Positions 7,135 to 19,492 of a stretch of 64,000 bases of DNA are shown here, piece by piece. Within the stretch, counting starts at the first letter, position 1; each line of letters starts with the position of its first letter. Source of the DNA: Rhizodiscina lignyota (taxonomy: Eukaryota; Ascomycota; Dothideomycetes; Aulographales; Rhizodiscinaceae); NCBI GenBank assembly GCA_010015805.1, contig ML978126.1:868001-932000 (forward strand), given 5' to 3'. Both the position numbers and the translations under genes were made by a program. The notes under the pieces are model-generated. The model saw only the letters and a list, made by a program, of their open reading frames with translations. It was not told the DNA's origin and searched no databases.

Positions 7135-10100
7135 CTATCGTAATCGTCCATCAAGTACACCGTCAGCCTCTAAGCCAGGCCTTATTGCCTCGTCTAACGT
7201 CGCGAACGTACTCACACTCGCCCTTCCTTCGGCGCCCCTTTCTCCGTGCCCTCTACTGCTACCAAGGCCTCCAGCACCTTCACCCCTCTCAAGTGCAGGT
7301 GTATCCGCGTCTTCGGCTCTCCCGAACACCTCCCCATCGCCACCAAACTCGTCTCTAAATTCCGATTTCCCTTTCCACCTCTCGAAGTCCATATCCGACT
7401 CACTAACGGTCTCAACTTCCATGCCTGGCACCAGCGCTGCTGTACTACCACTCTCACTCGCCGAACCGTCGCCGCCACCAGGTACTGCGAGCCGTCCATC
7501 CTGTTTCAATGGCGACATGTATATTGCACTTTCTGAATACGCAAGAACCGGCCTCGACGCAGCAAAATCAATGTCGTCAATTTCTTCATTCCCCTCGGTG
7601 ACCGATCCTTTCCGTTTTTGTGTCGTTGTTGACATACTGAGAACCTCGGCCAATAAGTGTTGACTCTTTGCGTGGACCATCGGAGTGATGAGCTCCTTGT
7701 ACAGCGCTGGATGGCCGAATTTGACGGCCAGCCGGCTTGACGTCTTTTCTCCGCTCGGAGTGCCTGGTGACAGTTCCAGATCCGATTCTGAAGCCAAACC
7801 CCGGGTAGCCATTCCGTCTGTTCCTGTGAGGGCCGGATTTGGGGAAATGTAGCCCATTTTGCTGTCGAAGTACTTTATCAAGTACCACTTGAAACCGGCC
7901 AACAGAAAAGGCAGTGGGATCATCGCGTAGAGCATTCCCCCATTGTGCACTGCGTTCTGAGAGCCCACGCCCTGCGCGCCCACCACTAATGCGATAACAG
8001 CATTTGACAGTAGGATAGCAAAGAGGAGGCGGTTCACAAGCATGCGCCAGAATGCTCCACCGGACTCGGTCTTCGTAAAGCATATGTATTGGAGCATATA
8101 CGTCTTGAACCAGACTTCGACGCCAAGGTAGAAGGCGGTGATTGGCAAAATGATTGGTTGAAGCGTAGCAAAACAAAGTCCGACTGTAGCAGCGAAGAGA
8201 AAGTTGTTGTAGTAGTCAGCGTACTCGAACTTCTGTGGGGCGGTTAATTCGATCAACTCTCGTGGTGTCGGATGCATGTAGCGTTTCTTAAAGGTGTTCA
8301 ACACCAATGGCCACAGCTGGCTGAGATCCGTCGCCGCAGAGAGGTTATGTTGCATCTGCCAAGTGAGCCAGTAGGTGGAAACGTTGCACAAGCCTATCAT
8401 GAGTTGAGTGAACGGGTGTCCTTCCTTGAGTGCGTCCCAGACACCCTTGTCCTTCGATCCTATAACTGCCGCAGCATAGCGCCATGCAGAGGCAAATATG
8501 GAGAAGATGACAAGATTATTGAACACGAAGAAGGCGTAAAGGCGGCTCGTCAAATGGCGTTCTCTACTGGTACGAGAAGCGTCTCCAGAATGAGTAAGCA
8601 GGCGGCGGAAGATAGCCGGCAAGGCGATGTAAAAGAGCGTTTGCACGGCAGGGGCAATAATACCCTGAGCGATACCCCAGCCAGTCGGGTGAGCTTCAAG
8701 GTTCTTCTGGAATGACGACCAGACAAGTCCGAGATGGGAGAAGTCGGAGAGAAAGACTGAAGTCAAGATGTTGGGTATCACGAAGACGGCCGTGAGCAAA
8801 GACATCCAGAGGCTGTCCCAGAACAAGCGATTGCGTCGAGTTGCGCGAGTCATCGGGAGGTTCTGCCAGAGTATATCGTGTGGCTTCGGCGCGAGGGCGA
8901 TAGAGACACCTTGTCGAGCCTTTTTGCTGCTGGACTTTTCGTTTACATAGGCCACAGCATGAGCTGTCTCGATAGAGTGAAACGATGCAAAGCCATACGA
9001 TTCAGGATCTCGCTTGTCGATTGATTCGCGTGCGTCGTAAATTTGAGCTTTCAATTCGCGAATACGGTGCGTGAGATAGTCGATAGCGTCGACTTTTCCA
9101 TTTGCATCTGTCTGGACGTCCTTGTCTTTCTTTGAAGGTTTACACAGTGGCCGCTTCTCAGGAAGATGGTTTGGATCTGCCAGATATTTTGCAAGATATT
9201 TTTCGAGCTTTCGGACAGCTTCGTCATGTTCCTCGATGAGTTCTGGAAGACCCCAACGCCTGACGTTGCGGCCAATTGCTGTACGGGGCAGCTGATCTGT
9301 CGCGTCGCTTGCTGACACGATTTCTGCAATCCCAGTGTCGGTTTGCGCACCAGCGGGAATGTGTCTAAGCTGCTAATAATTAGTTGCAAGCCTCGCCAGG
9401 CCTCCCCTCTTACATGAGCACGTACCAGCAGAGTCCTTGAATGCAAACTGGACGTGTAATCCCAGCTCCTGAAGTACGCCTGCCTCAGACGGAGAACAGC
9501 TCGGTAATTCCACCAAATGAAGAAGCAGATGACCGCCTCAAAGACATATGCGCAAGCTACAAACGCCCAAAACTTCTCGCCGAATATGTATTGCGGTGTA
9601 AGCTTCAACAGGGTGGCGATGTTGCTGTACTGTTTGTAGACTTGGTGGCCTCCAACCAGATTAATGGGAATGATGACCGCACAGCCAAAGATTGTAACAA
9701 CAATGAAGATGTTCCGAATCATTCGAAGGAAACGGAGGAACACCACGGCATCCAGGCCGATCTTATCGACAAGTTCAGGCTCTTTTACTGTTATGGCTCT
9801 GATCCAACCAAGTGGCTGCCTCTCCAGTCGCTGAGGTGCATGTTTTTCATCGGCAGATTTCGCTCGAGGGGCATAGATATGACCGAATCGAGGACGGAGG
9901 AAGCAGAAGACCACAAATAGACCTGCTGACACGGCAAAGGACCAGATGAGGGCGGCGTAGATCGAGTTTGCTTGGACCTAAGAATTGTCAGAAAGTCTGA
10001 GATTGGGAATTGCTCTGCACTCCGTAGCATTCCCGAGGGTGACAAAATAATTGAATCACATGAAACTTGAATGAGTGCAGCAGTGTTCAACGTTGGCAAG

Positions 10101-10995: not shown

Positions 10996-13022
10996 TCACA
11001 GTTTACTGCCGCTCGCCAAGGCCTTGATAACCTCACTTGCAGCTCTCTGTCCCGAAGTGACAGCACCTTCTAAATAACCCTTCCACTCGTACGCAAGTTC
11101 GCCTCCTCCAAAATGCAGGTCTCCAAAAGGCTCCCTGAGCGCCGAGCCGTACTGGTTGAGCAACCCAGGCCCCATCGCCGAAGTTGGTGCCCCGCCGATG
11201 AAGTCCTCTTTCGTCCACTCCACGCAATTGACCTCTAGTACGTCTCTTGCCTTGGAGGCCAGCTGAGGTCCAACAAGAGTTGCAAGATGCTCAATAATCG
11301 CTTCCTCGCGAGCAAGCTCACTCAACGCATGCCATTCCGAGGCGCGACGACCGGCGATGAAAAGCGCCAGGCTGTACTGCCTCGTCGCCTCGTCGCTGGT
11401 TTCCCAGCTAAAGCAGATGGGTCCGAGCATCGAGGTGAATTTCCCGACTAGACCAGCGTGCCTCCACCATGGAGATGCGTAAGTGAGAACCATTTTTGCA
11501 TATATACCAGGCTTCGTGCGCGAGACAAGTGCTTTCTTTGCGCGAGGAAGGGGCGGAGAGAAGCGAATGTTGGCGTAAGTATTCGTAGGGATCGCGAGTA
11601 CTACCTTTTTCGCAATGAAAGTTTGTCCCGTTACGGTGGTGACGGTGGATTTTTGTCCGTATTGTGTGATGGATCCAACAGGACTATGGATGATGACACT
11701 CCCTGGTTCCATCGCAGCAGCAAGCGCAACAGCAATCGACGATGTTCCTGGAATAAAAATTTCATCAGAATACTGACACGAGGGAAGCAGTCACTCCCGC
11801 AGTACTCACCTTTCTTGAGCTTTAACGACTGGGCGCCATACTCTCCCTCCGTGACACAGCTAACCCAGCCACCACAGGACTTGATGTAGTCAAAGAAATA
11901 GTGGGCGCCGGTTTCATGTGGCTCTCGTCCGACGATTGCAGAAGTCAAGTGGCTGCACTGTGCTCGAATAGCAGCGTCGTCATATAGGCCCTTCTCTATC
12001 ATCCAATCCGCCACAGACACATCCTCATTCTGTGGGAAATCGTCCCACTTGCGGATATCGCGCTGCTCAGCGGCTTCTGCGATCGTTGCGTAGAGCTGTT
12101 GCACTTTTGCGGCCACGTCATCCGCTGAGGCCTGAATGGTCGTTAGCTGTGGAACGCTTCATTTTCCTATGGCAGCGGAAAAGTTGATGGTTACCTGGTC
12201 CTGGTGGCTGTCTGAACTCCTGACGGCCTGGCCATCAATGCATTGAAAGACCTCATCGCCGTCAGTATATTGCTCTGCAGTCTCCAAACCGAATTTCTCT
12301 GTCAGGGCATAGACGGCTGGCTGTGTCCATTTGTTTATCCACGTCGCTCCCATGTCTATAACTCCTGGCCCACTCTTTAGAGGTTGTGACCGACTTCGCC
12401 CGCCAATTCGATGCCTGGCTTCCAGTAGGACAGTTTTGATCCCTGCTTGCTGCAGTTCATAAGCTGCTGCGAGACCTGAGAAACCCCCACCAACCACAAT
12501 TGCATCCACTTCGACGGATGGGACAGGGCGAGCCACTGCTGAAGCACCTCCTGGCGGAAGATGCCCGTCTGCTTCTGTCCACGGCCTGGAAAGCCCACCA
12601 ACACTGGCTACAGCTTCAACCTCAATCTTGGCTGCTGGAAACGCTAGTTTGGCAACGGGAATGAGCGTAGTCAGAGGTCTATATGTGACACCATACTCCT
12701 CGGTGAGAAGTGCAATGACAGGTTTGACCAGATCTGCACCCGCGTCCAAGGTCCAGTCAACAGCATAGAAGCGAAGCTGTACGATATCACGTGGAGATGT
12801 ACCTGCAGCGCGAAGGACATCGACCACGTTTGCAATTGCTTGCTTCACCTGCCCGCCAAAGGTGTCGGGGAAGCTGCCGTCTTTGAATTGACCAAGTTGA
12901 CCTGATGTGAGGACTAAACGACCAGCACCGTTTATCGATACACCGTGGGAGTACCATCCTGGATCTGAAATTGATGTGCCATTGACGAACGAGGTATATG
13001 GATGGACGTCTCGAGGTGCCAT
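10996..13022 (-). CDS. RidA-flavin amine oxidase fusion protein
   Basis: Exons 13022-12195, 12131-11810 and 11747-10996 (introns 63 and 62 nt) give 633 aa. Residues ~1-143 are a RidA/YjgF/UK114 domain: VLTSGQLGQF, AIANVVDVLRAAG, then YRPLTTLIPV and IEVEAVA, which keep the Arg (R115) that binds substrate carboxylate in RidA enzymes. Residues ~172-633 are a monoamine-oxidase-type domain: the Rossmann motif VVGGGFSGLAAAYEL, LLEARHRIGGRS, DMGATWIN, the flavin lysine in GIYAKMVLTYASPWWR, and C-terminal WKGYLEGA. The Cys that binds FAD covalently in animal MAO is absent (GGAPTSAM), so FAD is probably non-covalent. RidA hydrolyses imines or enamines, the products of amine oxidation, so the fusion is chemically coherent. 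It is transcribed divergently from the adjacent regulator. Confidence 0.94.
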
Positions 13023-13447
13023 GACTAGAAATGTCTAAGTCTGGTTTGGGATGATGAAGATGGGAGAAGTAGTAGAGTTAGGACTCTCGCCCTCGTTCGA
13101 AGTGGAGAATCTATTATAGTTACAGCACTTCATTGTTTCTCGTCACGGATTCTACAAGTTTACGATCGGTGAAGACGTTCTCCGAGACGGAGAGACAGAA
13201 GGCTGCTCCAATTGATCTCGTACCCCTGCATAATCTAAGTGCAGCAGGGCGCGGCAATTGCCCTTATCTTGCCGCCAGATCTAGCCGCGCATGGCATCCT
13301 TTCTCCTCTTCTCTACGGAGGCGTACGGATTACCCCAGTCTGTGCTCGTGACATTTCTACTCCGCATCACATCTTCGCCTGGAGCGGGCGTTGTGGGGAT
13401 GCAACACTTCTCGCCTTACATTATTTGATGCCATCAGACGTGGGAAC
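13023..13447. promoter_or_regulatory. Divergent promoter between the RidA-amine oxidase and the Zn2Cys6 regulator
   Basis: This 425-base region must contain both promoters. Seen: a perfect inverted repeat at 13179-13193, TCTCCG-AGA-CGGAGA, i.e. a CCG-N3-CGG pair of the kind bound by dimeric Zn2Cys6 proteins; and TTATCT at 13264-13269, which is AGATAA (HGATAA, a GATA-factor site) on the other strand. Self- and target-regulation by the neighbouring regulator is an inference. Confidence 0.5.
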
Positions 13448-15183
13448 ATGGCTAATGCAGCTCCTTTGGATCTGATGCTGGCGAACCGGTTTCCAAGACG
13501 ACACTCCCAGCTCGCGTACGATCTTGTCGATGGCCATGAGGAGTCACATCAGGGTCGACATCGCAGTTCTCGCGCCCTGCGACCCAATTACCCACGTGTA
13601 AGAACAGGATGTCTAACCTGCCGCATTCGCAAGAAGAAGTGCGACGAGATCAAGCCGCGGTGTGCAGGTTGTCGCCGGAACCAAGTTTACTGCGAATGGC
13701 CGTGTGCTACGAACGTCAAGCCCTCGAAAATGGATTCCCAAGAGTATCTCCCTGACTCTGAGGACCTGCATCTTCGATCTTCTTCACCAGTAATTTCACA
13801 CACCGCCGGAGTGACAGGATTGAGAATTTCTTGGGATTTACCACTACGTGAAGATCTGCCCCCGCTCTGCAAAGGCGAAGTAGGAAATTTCTGGTCTCTG
13901 TTCAACCCACGTGTTGGGACCTGGACTGGCTCAGACCGACCCTGCTCGCTGACACCAGCATCTCTTCTGCTATTCAGCCACTACCTGAGCGAGACTGGGG
14001 TCTTACTGGCTATGGTACCATTTCACAAAAATCCCTTTATTACGCACATTGTCCCAATGGCCTGCACGGACGACTTGTTAATGCACAGCGTGCTGGCATT
14101 AAGTGGAGCACACCTAGCGTTCAAACAAGATCTGGATGCGTCCATTCAGAGTGCTACTTTGCGCCACTATTCAGAAGTCATTCGGGGTCTGCGAACTGAG
14201 GTTGGCAGTCTTCACATGAAAGATGCTCGAGGCACTCTAAGACTGCTGCTCATTTCCATCATGGTGTGCCACTACGAGGTCAATGTTCTGATTCGACATC
14301 TTCAATGCTCAAGCTAATCAGCGCACAGGTCCTATCAGGAGACATGACTGGAACTACCTTTAAACACTTGCGTGCAAGCCGGGAACTTATTCTTCAGCTC
14401 CTTTCGCAGCCTGATGGACTTACGGCCGGCTTTCTCGCATTTGAAACTGATGCACTTGGTCTCTGCCTCGAGCTTTATGCTTACATAGTGATTATGAACT
14501 CACTCTCACCCTACGGCAGTGTGGCCACTCGGACCATGCCGTATGATACATTCGTCCTGTCGCTGGGGACGTTAAGCTCATATTCGACCTTTGGCACGAT
14601 GTTTGGTGGAATACACGGGCTCTTTGAGCTTATTCCACAAGTTGCGTTGTTAGCCTCTCAGAGGCTGGTGGAAGAAGAATCAGGAATGACCAAGCCAGAT
14701 CCAGAGACGGTTGCAATGCATGATTCTCTCGAAGCTCGTATTCGAAATTGGGATCTCTCCCCAGATCCATCAGAGGATACTACGGAGTGGGAAGAGCGAA
14801 GCACTGCGGGCGAAGTGCTCCGACATGCGTTATACATCTATCTCTCTACTGCGCTAGCCGGATCACTCATATCCGACCCTGATATCTTATCGTTCATCCA
14901 ATTCCATATCGATGCTATCCTCAACATGGCCGGTTCTCTGGCAGAGTCTCATTACGCATGTACCCTCATGTGGCCACTACTAATCGCTGGCTCATGCATG
15001 GTCAGAGAATCACAGCGTACTGAGCTTGTCACGAGGCTTCGGGCATCTAGATATCGCATGAAGCATGTGTTTTCGGCTTGCGACCTTCTGCAGAAGCTAT
15101 GGGAAAGCCATGATCCGCAAGCGTATGGGCCCTATGGACTCTACATGATGGAGAGACATGACTATTGCATACCAATTATCTAG
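13448..15183 (+). CDS. Zn2Cys6 transcription factor with fungal-specific regulatory domain
   Basis: Exons 13448-14278 and 14329-15183 (50-nt intron, branch GCTAATC, acceptor CACAG) give 561 aa. The DNA-binding cluster is near residues 55-85: CLTCRIRKKKCDEIKPRC then AGCRRNQVYC, spacing C-x2-C-x6-C-x6-C-x2-C-x6-C. The rest is the helical Fungal_trans_2-type domain, with LSGAHLAFKQD before the intron and TTFKHLRASRELI after it. It is nuclear and probably the pathway regulator of the cluster, since it lies between the two amine oxidase genes. Its stop is 58 bases from the stop of the second amine oxidase, so these two genes converge tail to tail. The ATG at 13448 is the first in the frame; an upstream exon cannot be excluded. 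Confidence 0.93.
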
Positions 15184-15241: not shown

Positions 15242-16726
15242 TCAAAGCCTATTCTTTCTCAGGGTCCGAATAACCTCTTGCGCTCCCCTCACTCCAGACC
15301 GAACGGCGCCTTCCATATAACCTTTCCATACCAGCGCAGTCTCGGTCCCCACGAAATGCAGCTTCTCAAAAGGCTCACGAATTACTTTGCCCGCATCGCT
15401 AGTCAACAAGCCTGGCATCATAACCGGCGACGGAGCGCCGAGCGCCCATGGATCCTTGGCCCACTCCTTTTCGATGATATTAATTGGGGCTGGAACCTCT
15501 ACGCCCTTCTCTCTTGCAGTTCTTCCGAAAACAGCATCGAATTGCTCTTCCACCTGTCTTCGGCGCTCAGCGGCAGACCATTTCGACCACTCTCTTCCAC
15601 TGTCGCCAACAATGAAGCAAGTGATGCTATACTGCTTATCAGCCTCGACGCAAGTGTCCCTCGTAAAGGATATCGGTCCCTTCGCGGACGTCATGAGCCC
15701 GCTCAGTCCGGCTTCACGCCACCAAGGCACCCCGAAAACGAAGATTGTCTTCGCGTAGTAGCCCAGCGCTGTATTCTCTGCAAGCGCCTGCTTGGCTACC
15801 GGCAGTGGCGGCTCAAAGATTACGGAAGGCAAATTGGACGTTGGAATAGAAAGAATGACTCTCTGTGCATGAAAGACCGGTCCAGAACCTTCCGTCTCGA
15901 CCTTACAGCCCTGGGATGCTTCTTGCGAAACCCGGGAGACGGCTGTTGAGAGTCGAAGGGAGCCATGGGGTAGCAGAGCTGCCAGCCGCACTGAGAATTG
16001 CTGGTTACCTGCTCACGTCATTAAGCAGGGTCTCGGGGTAAATAGACGAATAGGATGTGAGAAGCTCCTACCTTGGCGATTTCTTAAATATTGACCACCA
16101 TGCTTCAGATCTGACGACATGTTCTCCAGTCCTGTCCCACTTTGGATGTAATTCAACATGAACAAGACACTGACTTCATCCGCCTCGACTCCAAGGAGTG
16201 CAGCACTCAACGAACTCGCTGCTTGCGCCGCAACATCACCTCCGGCGTCCGCGGCGAACTTGCTGAAAGTGACCGAGTCTAACGACGCAGCGTTTGGACT
16301 CAAGTGTGGCTTTTCCAGGTGTCCTTCAGCGACTCGGTGATTTATACAATCAAAGAGGGCTCCCAATGCCTCCAAATCTTCTGGTGTCGATGGTTCTCGA
16401 GAACCATAAGGGTGTGTCACGACCTCTCCGCCCGGTCCCTGTGACAGGCTGAGACCTGAAGCTCTTTGCTTGACTAGATCGAACCCGAATTCGCGAGCTA
16501 ACTTGTACATCTCGCTTTGGTTGCTGTCGTTGATCCAGGCGGCACCCACATCGACTTTTCCGCCTCTGCCGGATGAGTCGAGGCTCAAGGTCTTGCCGCC
16601 AACTCTGTCTCTTGCTTCAAGTACGAGAACAGATAACCCTGCTCGATAGATGTCGACAGCTGCGCGTAGACCAGAGAGTCCGGCGCCGACGACGATAACA
16701 TCAACTGATGCGGAATTTGTCGCCAT
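15242..16726 (-). CDS. Flavin-containing amine oxidase (MAO-N-like)
   Basis: Exons 16726-16072 and 16008-15242 (63-nt intron) give 473 aa, close to fungal MAO-N (~495). It should oxidise a primary amine with O2 to an imine plus H2O2. Seen: VIVVGAGLSGLRAAVDI (residues ~10-26), LEARDRVGGKT, DVGAAWIND, the flavin lysine in GYYAKTIFVF-GVPWWR, and C-terminal FVGTETALVWKGYMEGAVRS. As in MAO-N there is no FAD-linking Cys (LGAPSPVMMPG). The final residues RKNRL are not a strong peroxisomal PTS1. It is clearly a paralogue of the amine oxidase half of the fusion (shared PWWR, GPI-F, SEW/REW blocks) but diverged. It shares a divergent promoter with the permease. Confidence 0.94.
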
Positions 16727-17609
16727 TGTGGTTTGTTAAACAACGATGGCTACTACCAAGGAGAATCAGGCCATCCGTAAACTTCAACCGCTACTGAGAA
16801 CCTCCGTCAAAGGCGCCATATATCTTGAATGGTCCATCCGCCATCAGTTCAAGGTCGAGCAAAGGCAACCGCGGTCGTGCTGCAATCGATTTTGGGTTTT
16901 GATCCGAGTTCAGACTTCAGCCCCACAGCGAGGTGGGTCTGGGCGGAATTTATCTAACCGCGCCAAGCATCTGAAATCTAACCGCGCTGTGCATTAGCGC
17001 CCGCCACAAAGTCTGGGGCCCCGCGCTCCTTCACAAAACTCTGCACGGTTGCACAGACAACAGTGTTACGCCCGAAGTGTTCTTGCCTCCTCGATCGCTA
17101 GTTTTGTGAGGCACAGTATCTTGACCATGCTGTTTATCTACCCGCTCGATGCGTTAGTCCTAGGGCGAAGCGCTTCAGTCGGCATGAGGCCTTCGATGTG
17201 CCCTGATATGCGTAATAGCATGCGGGCCGGTAGAGTTTGGCTTCTGTTCTTCAATTTAATTCGATGTTTCATGCTCAGACTTGAGTCCAGATGTTAGGAA
17301 ATCTACTTCGGAATTGTAGCTCATGTGATTTTCCTTTATCTCATCCATTGCCCAAATTTATGACACTGCATCCTTTGCTCCGATGTAGGTTTTGGATTTG
17401 ACGATCCACGATGAACTTGCCGCGGCCAGCCAGGTCACCACCTTCTCTTCTCGCGGCTCCAAACCCCCTAAGAACTCTTCTAATCGGCTAATATGAAGCC
17501 TTAACCCCCCCTCGACTCGATTATTGATTAGCTGCTCTTCCACCTGCCAGTGCTTTATTGTCTCTTCTTCTCCTTGTGCAATTTCACATTTCACAAATAA
17601 CAAGAAGCA
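16727..17609. promoter_or_regulatory. Divergent promoter between amine oxidase 2 and the permease
   Basis: An 883-base intergenic region serving both genes. Three AGATAA motifs on the minus strand (TTATCT at 16950-16955, 17134-17139 and 17336-17341) match the HGATAA consensus of the nitrogen regulator AreA/NIT2. A 12-base direct repeat, ATCTAACCGCGC, occurs at 16952-16963 and 16976-16987; its first copy overlaps a GATA motif. No gene is seen inside. Confidence 0.5.
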
Positions 17610-19492
17610 ATGTTCCCCGTTCAAACGAATACCTCCGGTTCTGGGAGTAGGTTACGGATTTTCTTATCCTCCACGCAATCATTTCAACTGAAACCTGAAC
17701 CGTCAGACTTTCCCGAGAAAGCAGAGATCCCCTCACCAGTAACCCGGAGCATCGAAGAGGATAACAATGTTGAGCTCGGACTAGAAATTCCTGCAAATGG
17801 CCAAGGACAAATGAAGAAAGATCTGGGGGCTCTGACGCTTCTAGCCATTTGCTTCAACATCTGCAACAGTTGGCCGGGCCTCGCCGGCAGCGTTCAAATC
17901 GCTCTACTCCAAGGTGGTCCAGCAACACTTCTCTACGGCATGATCATCAGTGCCAGTCTTTACATCTCTATCGCTTTGACTATGGCGGAGCTCGCGAGTG
18001 TGTACCCGACTGCTGGAGGTCAATATCACTTCGTATCCATCCTTACGCCGAAATCTCTGAATCGTGGTTTATCCTACATCTGCGGTCTACTCACAAATTT
18101 TTCCTGGATTGCCATCGGAGCCTCCGTCCTGATGATCCCAAGCATGCAAATCACTGCTCTCGTGTCTCTTTACCGCCCGACATATGTCGTTAAGGCTTGG
18201 CACGAATTCTTAATCTACGAAGGATTTGGCCTCGTGATTCTCTTGTATAACCTTTTCGCAGTGAAGAAGCTCCCAAGAACTCACGACGTTGGATGTAAGT
18301 CATCTCTTCTCATACGACTCGCAAAAGATGGGACAGCGTACTAACAACTTGTGAATTCGACTTCAGTCGTATTGACCCTCACGCTGTTTGTCGCTACAAC
18401 CCTGACATTTGTCATTCGCTCCTCTCCCAAGGCAAACAACGACTTCGTTTGGGCGACCTTCACAAACTTCACCGGCTGGCCAGACGGTGTCTGCTTCCTC
18501 ACATCTCTTCTAACTACTTGCTTTATCTTCGCCGGCTTGGATGCATCGTTGCACATGGCGGAAGAAGCCCCGAATCCACGAGTGTCGGTTCCAAGAGCCA
18601 GTGTCACCGCGATTGGAATTGGTTTTGTAACAGCCTTTGCATATGGCATTGTACTGCTGTATAGCATCCCAGATTTCGAGTCGATTGTTGCGATCGAAGG
18701 GTGAGTCTCACCGTGTGTCGCGACGTTCCATGGACTAGCTGATCGGATCCCTTAGCTATTTGCCCCTCGAAATATCCCGCCAGGGAATGCGCTCCGACCT
18801 TGCAGCTGCTATCACCCAGGCGGCTGGTGTCGTCATGACATTCTTTGTGATGAACGCAGTGCTTGAGACTGCCTCTCGGATCACCTGGGCGCTAGCTCGC
18901 GACAATGCATTGATATTCCCCGGCACATTCAGCAGTATTCATAGCACTCTGGGCGTTCCTATTTGGTCGATAATACTAGACTGGGCAATCCTGTCTCTGC
19001 TGGGATTAGTCTTTCTTGCATCGACAACAGGTGAGTTGGCAAAACTGCCAAAGATGCACCGAAGCTTTCTGACTTCCACTGACAACTTGTTAAAATAGCG
19101 TTCAATGCTCTTCTCGGATCTTGCGTGGTGTTGCAGCAGCTCTCATTCCTTATGCCCACAGTTCTCCTCATGTACCAGAGAAGATCGGAAGTCTTCTTAC
19201 CACGGAACAGGGCTTTCCGTCTACCCAATTGGTTTGGATGGATTGTCAATGCTTGGGTCGTCGTTATGTCCGCGCTTCTTGTCATTTTCTTCTTGCTGCC
19301 GCCTTTTCTGCCCGTCACTGGGAGTAACATGAGTCGGTATCCCTCCTACAGCTTGAGGTGGACTTTCAACTGACAGAAGAGACAGATTACAACGTCGTCA
19401 TCTTGGGAATCGCTGCCATTCTGGGGATTGTGAACTGGTTCGCCCACGCTAAGAACCACTATCAAGGTCCGAGAATATTCTACCACGACTGA
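17610..19492 (+). CDS. APC-superfamily amino acid/GABA/choline-type permease
   Basis: Five exons, 17610-18294, 18367-18700, 18756-19030, 19099-19323 and 19377-19492, with introns of 53-72 nt; all phases join to give 544 aa. It is a plasma-membrane proton symporter of the fungal amino acid/choline/GABA permease family. Seen: a hydrophilic ~75-residue N-terminus, then NICNSWPGLAGSVQIALLQG (helix 1), SLYISIALTMAELASVYPTA-GGQYHFV (helix 2 and the conserved GGQYHW-like motif), SRITWALARDNALIF in the middle, and ~12 helices overall. The tail PRIFYHD is short. The donor of intron 4 is GTAACA at 19324; an alternative donor 13 bases downstream breaks the frame. Its place beside the amine oxidases suggests it imports their amine substrate or a nitrogenous precursor. 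Confidence 0.94.

What the first reader, a model, noticed from the sequence alone, without database searches (positions are those of the whole stretch)
10996..13022. RidA domain fused to a flavin amine oxidase
One spliced frame joins a complete RidA/YjgF domain (residues ~1-143, substrate-binding Arg kept in YRPLTTL) to a complete MAO-type oxidase (~172-633). Amine oxidases release imines; RidA speeds hydrolysis of imines and enamines. A fused scrubber would pass the reactive product directly to hydrolysis. The join lies inside one 828-nt exon, so mis-splicing of neighbours cannot create it. I do not know of a described fungal enzyme with this architecture.
Basis: partly seen in the sequence, partly recalled or inferred. 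Interest (0 to 1): 0.82.

Follow-up and report, generated by a model that had tools for sequence, protein, structure and literature searches.

The report
Amine oxidase with altered Rid domain
A fungal enzyme that looks like an amine oxidase carries, in the same protein chain, a Rid-type domain whose usual key arginine is replaced by threonine, so it is a real fusion but probably not a ready-made imine scrubber.

Summary
The fusion is real. On the minus strand, one 828-nt exon encodes a Rid (YjgF/UK114) domain and the start of a flavin amine oxidase; with two more exons it gives 633 aa. No methionine lies between residues 1 and 224, so the oxidase's FAD-binding start cannot be translated alone from this exon. 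A second fusion, 36% identical in the oxidase half, lies on another contig, which argues strongly against an assembly or gene-model error.

The arginine in YRPLTTL is not the RidA arginine: E. coli Arg105 aligns with Thr118 in two alignments, and the second fusion also has Thr. Published work treats this arginine as the determinant of imine hydrolysis. Another locus of the genome keeps the RidA motif PARS.

Best reading: a flavin amine oxidase with a non-canonical, Arg-less Rid domain, acting as an assembly or regulatory module or, untested, as a hydrolase for carboxylate-free imines. From recall, an Exophiala fumonisin-degrading amine oxidase has this architecture, so I file it as a new member of a known kind. 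It offers a test of what Arg-less Rid proteins do.

The parts
10996..13022 (-). Rid-amine oxidase fusion gene, 3 exons (inferred), 633 aa
   Evidence: ORFs, splice model, Pfam on exon 1 and the exon-3 ORF
12195..13022 (-). exon 1 (828 nt): Rid domain, linker and start of the oxidase in one frame
   Evidence: no Met between residues 1 and 224
12594..13022 (-). Rid domain, residues 1-143
   Evidence: Pfam PF01042 at 22-140; AlphaFold2 model matching Rid structures by Foldseek
12669..12671 (-). codon of Thr118, at the position of Arg105 of E. coli RidA
   Evidence: phmmer alignment to 1qu9, MAFFT
12510..12593 (-). linker, residues 144-171; low confidence in the model; much shorter in the C7 fusion
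12132..12194 (-). intron 1 (63 nt, GTAACC...CTAAC...CAG), inferred
11810..12131 (-). exon 2, oxidase
11748..11809 (-). intron 2 (62 nt, GTGAGT...CAG), inferred; phase 1, as in the models of the C7, C10 and neighbouring oxidase genes
10996..11747 (-). exon 3, C-terminal half of the oxidase with Lys468 and the GGGELAYEWKGYLEGA stretch
   Evidence: Pfam Amino_oxidase E 1.3e-36 on the ORF; alignments
13448..15183 (+). divergent Zn2Cys6 transcription factor gene (start at the first ATG, introns not resolved), possible regulator
   Evidence: Pfam Zn_clus and Fungal_trans_2
15242..16726 (-). second flavin amine oxidase, without a Rid domain (473 aa, one inferred intron)
   Evidence: Pfam, splice model
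17604..18344 (+). ORF with the N-terminal part of an amino acid permease
   Evidence: Pfam AA_permease_2 E 6e-13

Best explanation
It is a genuine single-chain flavin amine oxidase (MAO type) with an N-terminal Rid-fold domain. The oxidase half oxidises an unidentified amine to an imine with FAD and oxygen (inferred from family). The Rid half has lost the arginine that defines imine-hydrolysing Rid proteins. Most likely it works as a Rid-type trimer-forming or ligand-sensing module that assembles or regulates the oxidase. It may still touch the carboxylate-free imine product, but not by the textbook RidA chemistry. The fusion, the fold and the residue change are shown by sequence and model. 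The oligomer, substrate and role are inferred.
For: One ORF carries both domains with no internal Met before 224. There is a second fusion on C7. The Rid model (mean pLDDT 74.7, blocks of 83-95 over residues 31-90) matches Rid structures, best 5v4f E 4.7e-10, and E. coli YjgF 1qu9 at E 2.0e-8. Arg105 is Thr in both fusions, while a separate locus of the same genome keeps PARS. The oxidase aligns over 165-629 with solved amine oxidases, best 8p84 E 1.9e-56, and keeps the FAD-binding ends and the lysine before PWW. Rid proteins are typically trimers (PMC4433059, passage).
Against: No RNA, protein or assay data. The trimer was not modelled. 46 of the 50 Foldseek rows listed have rmsd of 8.1-11.9 A, so part of the model is placed differently from most Rid structures. 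Tyr24 and Glu134, matching Tyr17 and Glu120 of the RidA pocket, are kept, which hints at a ligand pocket and not a pure scaffold, although in Salmonella RidA their replacement by alanine had little effect (PMC4433059). Outside this genome nothing here ties this Rid type to amine oxidases: 0 of 164 plasmid records with a match cover 80% of exon 1, and 0 of 80 bacterial relatives of the Rid domain have an oxidase of this type in the fetched flanks.
Confidence: 0.5

Rival explanations
1. The Rid domain is an active hydrolase for carboxylate-free imines released by the fused oxidase. The RidA arginine binds the carboxylate of amino-acid imines, so a Rid tuned to amine-derived imines could do without it.
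For: The arginine contacts the substrate carboxylate (PMC4433059 passages; acetate bound by Tyr21, Arg107 and Glu122 in PMC7311433). Tyr24 and Glu134 are kept. Thr at this position is shared by two diverged fusions. Rid genes cluster with FAD amine oxidases in bacteria (PMC4433059).
Against: No Arg-less Rid protein has shown imine hydrolase activity in the passages read; Salmonella Rid7 lowered semicarbazone formation by <3%, although only amino-acid imines were tested there. The bacterial clustering concerns RidA and sometimes Rid3, which keep the arginine. 0 of 80 bacterial relatives had such an oxidase nearby.
Confidence: 0.3
2. Canonical fused RidA scrubber with the substrate arginine kept.
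For: Rid fold and two of three pocket residues kept.
Against: Arg105 aligns with Thr118. R115 is in an insertion and is Leu in the second fusion.
Confidence: 0.07
3. Two neighbouring genes wrongly joined by the gene model.
For: The splice model has no RNA evidence and alternatives exist (one search lists many open combinations).
Against: Both domains lie in one uninterrupted ORF, with no Met between 1 and 224. A second diverged fusion exists in the genome.
Confidence: 0.03

Closest known systems
Exophiala spinifera aminopolyol (fumonisin aminopentol) amine oxidase, APAO (architecture recalled from patents; not seen in any call)
   Same: From recall: a fungal flavin amine oxidase of about 600 aa with an extra N-terminal segment of the YjgF/YER057c type; the 613-aa C7 fusion resembles this layout. 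PMC9415688 says only that E. spinifera has an FAD amine oxidase similar to AnFAO (passage).
   Different: Sequence not compared. The window protein has a longer linker, and its oxidase half is only 36% identical to the C7 one. Its substrate is unknown.
Aspergillus niger fumonisin amine oxidase AnFAO (PMC9415688, passages read)
   Same: Fungal FAD monoamine oxidase type; its imine is described as hydrolysing spontaneously to a ketone.
   Different: The words Rid, YjgF and domain do not occur in that paper's main text. Sequence not compared here.
RidA (E. coli YjgF and TdcF; PDB 1qu9, 2uyj)
   Same: Fold, and the residues matching Tyr17 and Glu120.
   Different: Arg105 replaced by Thr118. Fused to an oxidase.
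Arg-less Rid proteins of bacteria with P-x-[QSCW]-T-L (80 loci kept of 148 relatives)
   Same: Residue at this position: Q 63, S 6, C 5, W 5, gap 1, Arg 0 of 80. 30-42% identity in the best segment.
   Different: No such oxidase fused or nearby by tblastn. One of the two search patterns was TLIPV[PA][KA]LA, so the set is biased.
Bacterial monoamine oxidase 8p84 and cyclohexylamine oxidase 4i58
   Same: Oxidase half homologous over its length.
   Different: Chains of 474 and 471 residues that match only the oxidase half.

Membership tests
Rid superfamily (PF01042, YjgF/YER057c/UK114) | profile match above the curated cut-off | tested here: met
   57.2 bits against 27.3
Rid superfamily (PF01042, YjgF/YER057c/UK114) | Rid fold | tested here: met
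   AlphaFold2 model on a 42-row alignment; the 50 Foldseek rows listed have probability 1.00, with E. coli YjgF at E 2.0e-8; but 46 of 50 have rmsd above 8 A
RidA/Rid1-3 imine deaminases | arginine equivalent to RidA Arg105 | tested here: not met
   Thr118; criterion from PMC4433059 and PMC5619798 passages. About 10% of RidA proteins have Ser there
RidA/Rid1-3 imine deaminases | residues equivalent to Glu120 and Tyr17 | tested here: met
   Glu134 and Tyr24 (E134 invariant in the 42 rows)
RidA/Rid1-3 imine deaminases | homotrimer with active sites between subunits | not testable with these tools
   single-chain prediction only
Flavin monoamine oxidase family (PF01593) | match along the whole profile | tested here: met
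   exon 1 matches profile 1-80 and the exon-3 ORF profile 190-443; the spliced protein aligns over 165-629 with 8p84. The spliced protein itself was not run against Pfam
Flavin monoamine oxidase family (PF01593) | GxGxxG FAD-binding motif and conserved lysine before PWW (roles recalled) | tested here: met
   VVGGGFSGL at 176-184; Lys468 aligned with 8p84 and 4i58
Covalent-FAD MAO-A/B type | cysteine that carries FAD (recalled) | tested here: inconclusive
   Ala570 at the column where 8p84 and the C7 fusion have Cys; not aligned residue by residue with MAO-B

The most novel reading that the evidence does not exclude
The Arg-less Rid domain is a tethered hydrolase for carboxylate-free imines: loss of the carboxylate-binding arginine is the adaptation to the amine-oxidase product. 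That would give a function to Arg-less Rid proteins, whose role the reviewed paper calls unknown.
Probability: 0.28. Interest if true: 0.7.

Novelty: new member of a known kind. Interest (0 to 1): 0.42.

Why it matters
PMC4433059 calls the role of the Rid subfamilies without the arginine unknown (passages). A natural covalent link between such a domain and a flavin amine oxidase, seen twice in one genome, names a partner enzyme and makes the question testable with two or three purified constructs. If the domain hydrolyses simple imines, the arginine rule for Rid activity would apply only to amino-acid imines. If not, it is likely an assembly or sensor module, and annotations of such proteins as 'imine deaminase' or 'endoribonuclease' would mislead.

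Tried and rejected
Canonical RidA chemistry: rejected on the Thr118 alignment. Gene-model artefact: rejected.

Bacterial fusions. A genome-contig scan with the two exon-1 proteins gave 43 pattern matches and 0 relatives. The same alignment in viral contigs gave 66 pattern matches and 0 relatives. The patterns were narrow, so these say little. tblastn on plasmids found 164 records with a match and 0 with 80% coverage; 40 of the 164 were listed. The S. meliloti hit that seemed to reach into the oxidase (query 24-209) is a Rid ORF ending at L049:4333, so the extension is spurious. The second genome-contig scan, with three Rid sequences, gave 148 relatives among 414 pattern matches, of which 80 were kept. 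None of the 80 has a fused or nearby oxidase by tblastn at 1e-3; flanks were at most 2.5 kb and some shorter. Ten neighbouring ORFs chosen from 8 of those loci showed no amine oxidase in Pfam at 1e-5; 9 of 10 matched something else and 1 nothing.

Origin of the two fusions. In a six-sequence tree, with only four of this genome's oxidase genes in it, the window oxidase branches outside C7, C10 and the neighbouring oxidase (97.7/97). So the two fused oxidases are not sisters to the exclusion of unfused ones. The Rid tree does not group the two Rid domains, and supports near them are weak (47.6/49 to 79.7/86). Ancestral fusion with losses, or two fusions, cannot be told apart.

Third-position GC of Rid, linker and oxidase (0.441, 0.429, 0.552) was not informative. 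NCBIfam: the 25 rows shown of 86 for exon 1 are all below their cut-offs. PHROGs gave none at 0.001.

Literature: ten searches. No title or abstract start listed, and no passage opened (nine papers), describes a Rid-amine oxidase fusion. Four listings were cut (15 of 60; 10 of 20,302; 10 of 21; 10 of 18,805). Patents and most subscription journals are not in that library. Other fungal genomes could not be searched with the collections used.

Full report
Observation. The window lies in a 33.4-Mb genome held as 29 contigs (G000:C6:868001-932000); that it is fungal is inferred from the introns and the fungal transcription-factor domains next door. On the minus strand the ORF 12159-13034 runs 291 codons and contains, in one frame, a Rid domain (PF01042, residues 22-140, E 2.1e-15) and the FAD-binding start of an amine oxidase (PF01593 from residue 181, E 1.9e-21). 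Adding exons 12131-11810 and 11747-10996 gives 633 aa. The introns are 63 and 62 nt; intron 1 carries a CTAAC branch-like site and intron 2 begins GTGAGT. Other splice combinations also stay open, so the intron borders are inferred, but the junction of interest is inside exon 1. The Met codons are at 1, 224 and later, so the FAD motif at residues 176-184 cannot be started separately from within this exon.

The same architecture occurs a second time in the genome. Contig C7 has a 291-codon ORF that holds both domains. Its spliced 613-aa protein matches PF01042 at 28-134 (E 1.5e-17) and PF01593 over profile 1-443 (E 1.9e-53). One search lists 14 exon matches to PF01042, which I group into 10 places; two of the 10 coincide with PF01593 matches. 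Both lists are lower bounds by the tool's own statement. The oxidase halves of the two fusions are 36.0% identical.

The arginine. In the phmmer alignment with E. coli YjgF (1qu9), PARS of RidA aligns with PLTT of the window: Arg105 falls on Thr118, and the Arg of YRPLTTL sits in a one-residue insertion. A separate 48-sequence MAFFT alignment puts Thr118 in the same column. There the C7 fusion reads LPATTLIP, the standalone C5 protein KPPSTLIG and a C10 protein YPVSTLIG; a C17 locus of the same genome reads PARSCVAV. In 80 bacterial relatives fetched the position is Q 63, S 6, C 5, W 5, gap 1, and Arg 0. That set was partly selected by the next residues (TLIPV), so the count shows a type, not a frequency. 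Tyr24 and Glu134, equivalent to Tyr17 and Glu120, are kept (residue numbers counted by me from that alignment).

What the literature says (passages only). PMC4433059: Rid1-3 but not Rid4-7 have the arginine; changing it to alanine almost abolished activity; changing the tyrosine and glutamate had little effect; RidA and sometimes Rid3 genes cluster with FAD amine oxidase genes in bacteria; Salmonella RidA, Rid2 and Rid7 lowered semicarbazone formation by 93%, 46% and <3%; about 10% of RidA proteins have Ser at the arginine position; the Rid4-7 function is called unknown. PMC5619798: six Rid1-3 proteins with the arginine were active, and the arginine was taken as the determinant. PMC7311433: acetate, likely mimicking the carboxylate, is bound by Tyr21, Arg107 and Glu122. 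None of the passages that I read tests an imine without a carboxylate. PMC9415688: the imine made by the fungal amine oxidase AnFAO is described as hydrolysing spontaneously, which weakens the need for a scrubber.

Fold. An AlphaFold2 model of residues 1-172, on an alignment of the window with 41 of the 80 bacterial loci, has mean pLDDT 74.7 (five models 67.0-74.7), with blocks of 83-95 over residues 31-90 and 84-94 over 101-140. Residues 144-151 and 153-172 (linker) are below 50. Foldseek in the PDB puts 5v4f (Yersinia Rid protein) first at E 4.7e-10, and lists 1qu9 (E. coli YjgF) at E 2.0e-8 and the deaminase AmnE (6izh) at E 3.2e-8. In 46 of the 50 rows listed the rmsd is 8.1-11.9 A; the exceptions are 5v4f (2.4), 2uyj_C (1.7), 5hp7 (2.9) and 2b33_A (3.4). 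So one segment of the model is probably misplaced or differently packed, while the fold class is clear (my reading). The VIA-align check was not available.

Oxidase half. It aligns from 165 to 629 with a bacterial monoamine oxidase (8p84, E 1.9e-56), and with cyclohexylamine oxidase and MAO-B at weaker E-values. The GGGFSGL motif, Lys468 and the C-terminal GGGELAYEWKGYLEGA stretch align with the solved enzymes. It looks competent, but the substrate cannot be named.

Surroundings. A Zn2Cys6 regulator (13448-15183, +), a second flavin amine oxidase without a Rid domain (15242-16726, -; 473 aa) and an amino acid permease (17604-, +) follow, and an RSN1/PHM7-type channel gene lies on the other side. 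This may be a small amine or amino-acid utilisation cluster (inference). The neighbouring oxidase is 45.1% identical to the C7 fusion's oxidase and 35.2% to the window's. An intron of phase 1 at a similar place occurs in my models of all four genes; those models were chosen by me among open alternatives.

Mechanism. Shown: one chain, Rid fold, altered pocket residue, intact oxidase motifs. Inferred: the oxidase forms an imine and H2O2; the Rid part trimerises as Rid proteins do; the Rid pocket binds a ligand. I weigh an assembly or sensing role (0.5) above a non-canonical imine hydrolase (0.3) and well above canonical RidA chemistry (0.07). The strongest argument for the hydrolase reading is chemical: the missing arginine holds a carboxylate that an amine-derived imine lacks. 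The strongest arguments against are that the passages read report no active Arg-less Rid protein, and that bacterial relatives do not sit beside such oxidases (0 of 80).

Known or new. I recall, from patents and not from any call, that the fumonisin-degrading amine oxidase of Exophiala spinifera has an N-terminal YjgF-type extension. The held library gave papers on that enzyme's chemistry; the passages opened say nothing of its architecture. Ten searches listed no paper on the fusion. I therefore call it a new member of a known kind; if the recall is wrong, 'new variant' would be the better label. The point worth passing on is the missing arginine.

Noticed in passing
window 15242-16726 (-): A second flavin amine oxidase, unfused, 2.2 kb from the fusion gene and closer in sequence to the C7 fusion's oxidase (45.1%) than to the window fusion's (35.2%).
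   Followed up: partly
window 13448-15183 (+) and 17604- (+): Zn2Cys6 regulator between the two oxidase genes and an amino acid permease beyond; possibly a small amine-utilisation cluster.
   Followed up: partly
L017:689-2681 (-), contig C7: Second Rid-oxidase fusion of 613 aa with a much shorter linker, four inferred exons and PATT at the arginine position.
   Followed up: yes
L006/L008 (contig C17): A separate locus of the same genome keeps the canonical RidA motif PARS, so the cell need not rely on the fusion for canonical RidA activity.
   Followed up: partly
L049:3911-4333: S. meliloti pSymB Rid ORF; tblastn seemed to extend it into the oxidase half, but the frame ends at the Rid domain.
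   Followed up: yes
window 7138-9372 (-): RSN1_7TM/PHM7_cyt calcium-dependent channel-type gene downstream of the fusion gene.
   Followed up: no
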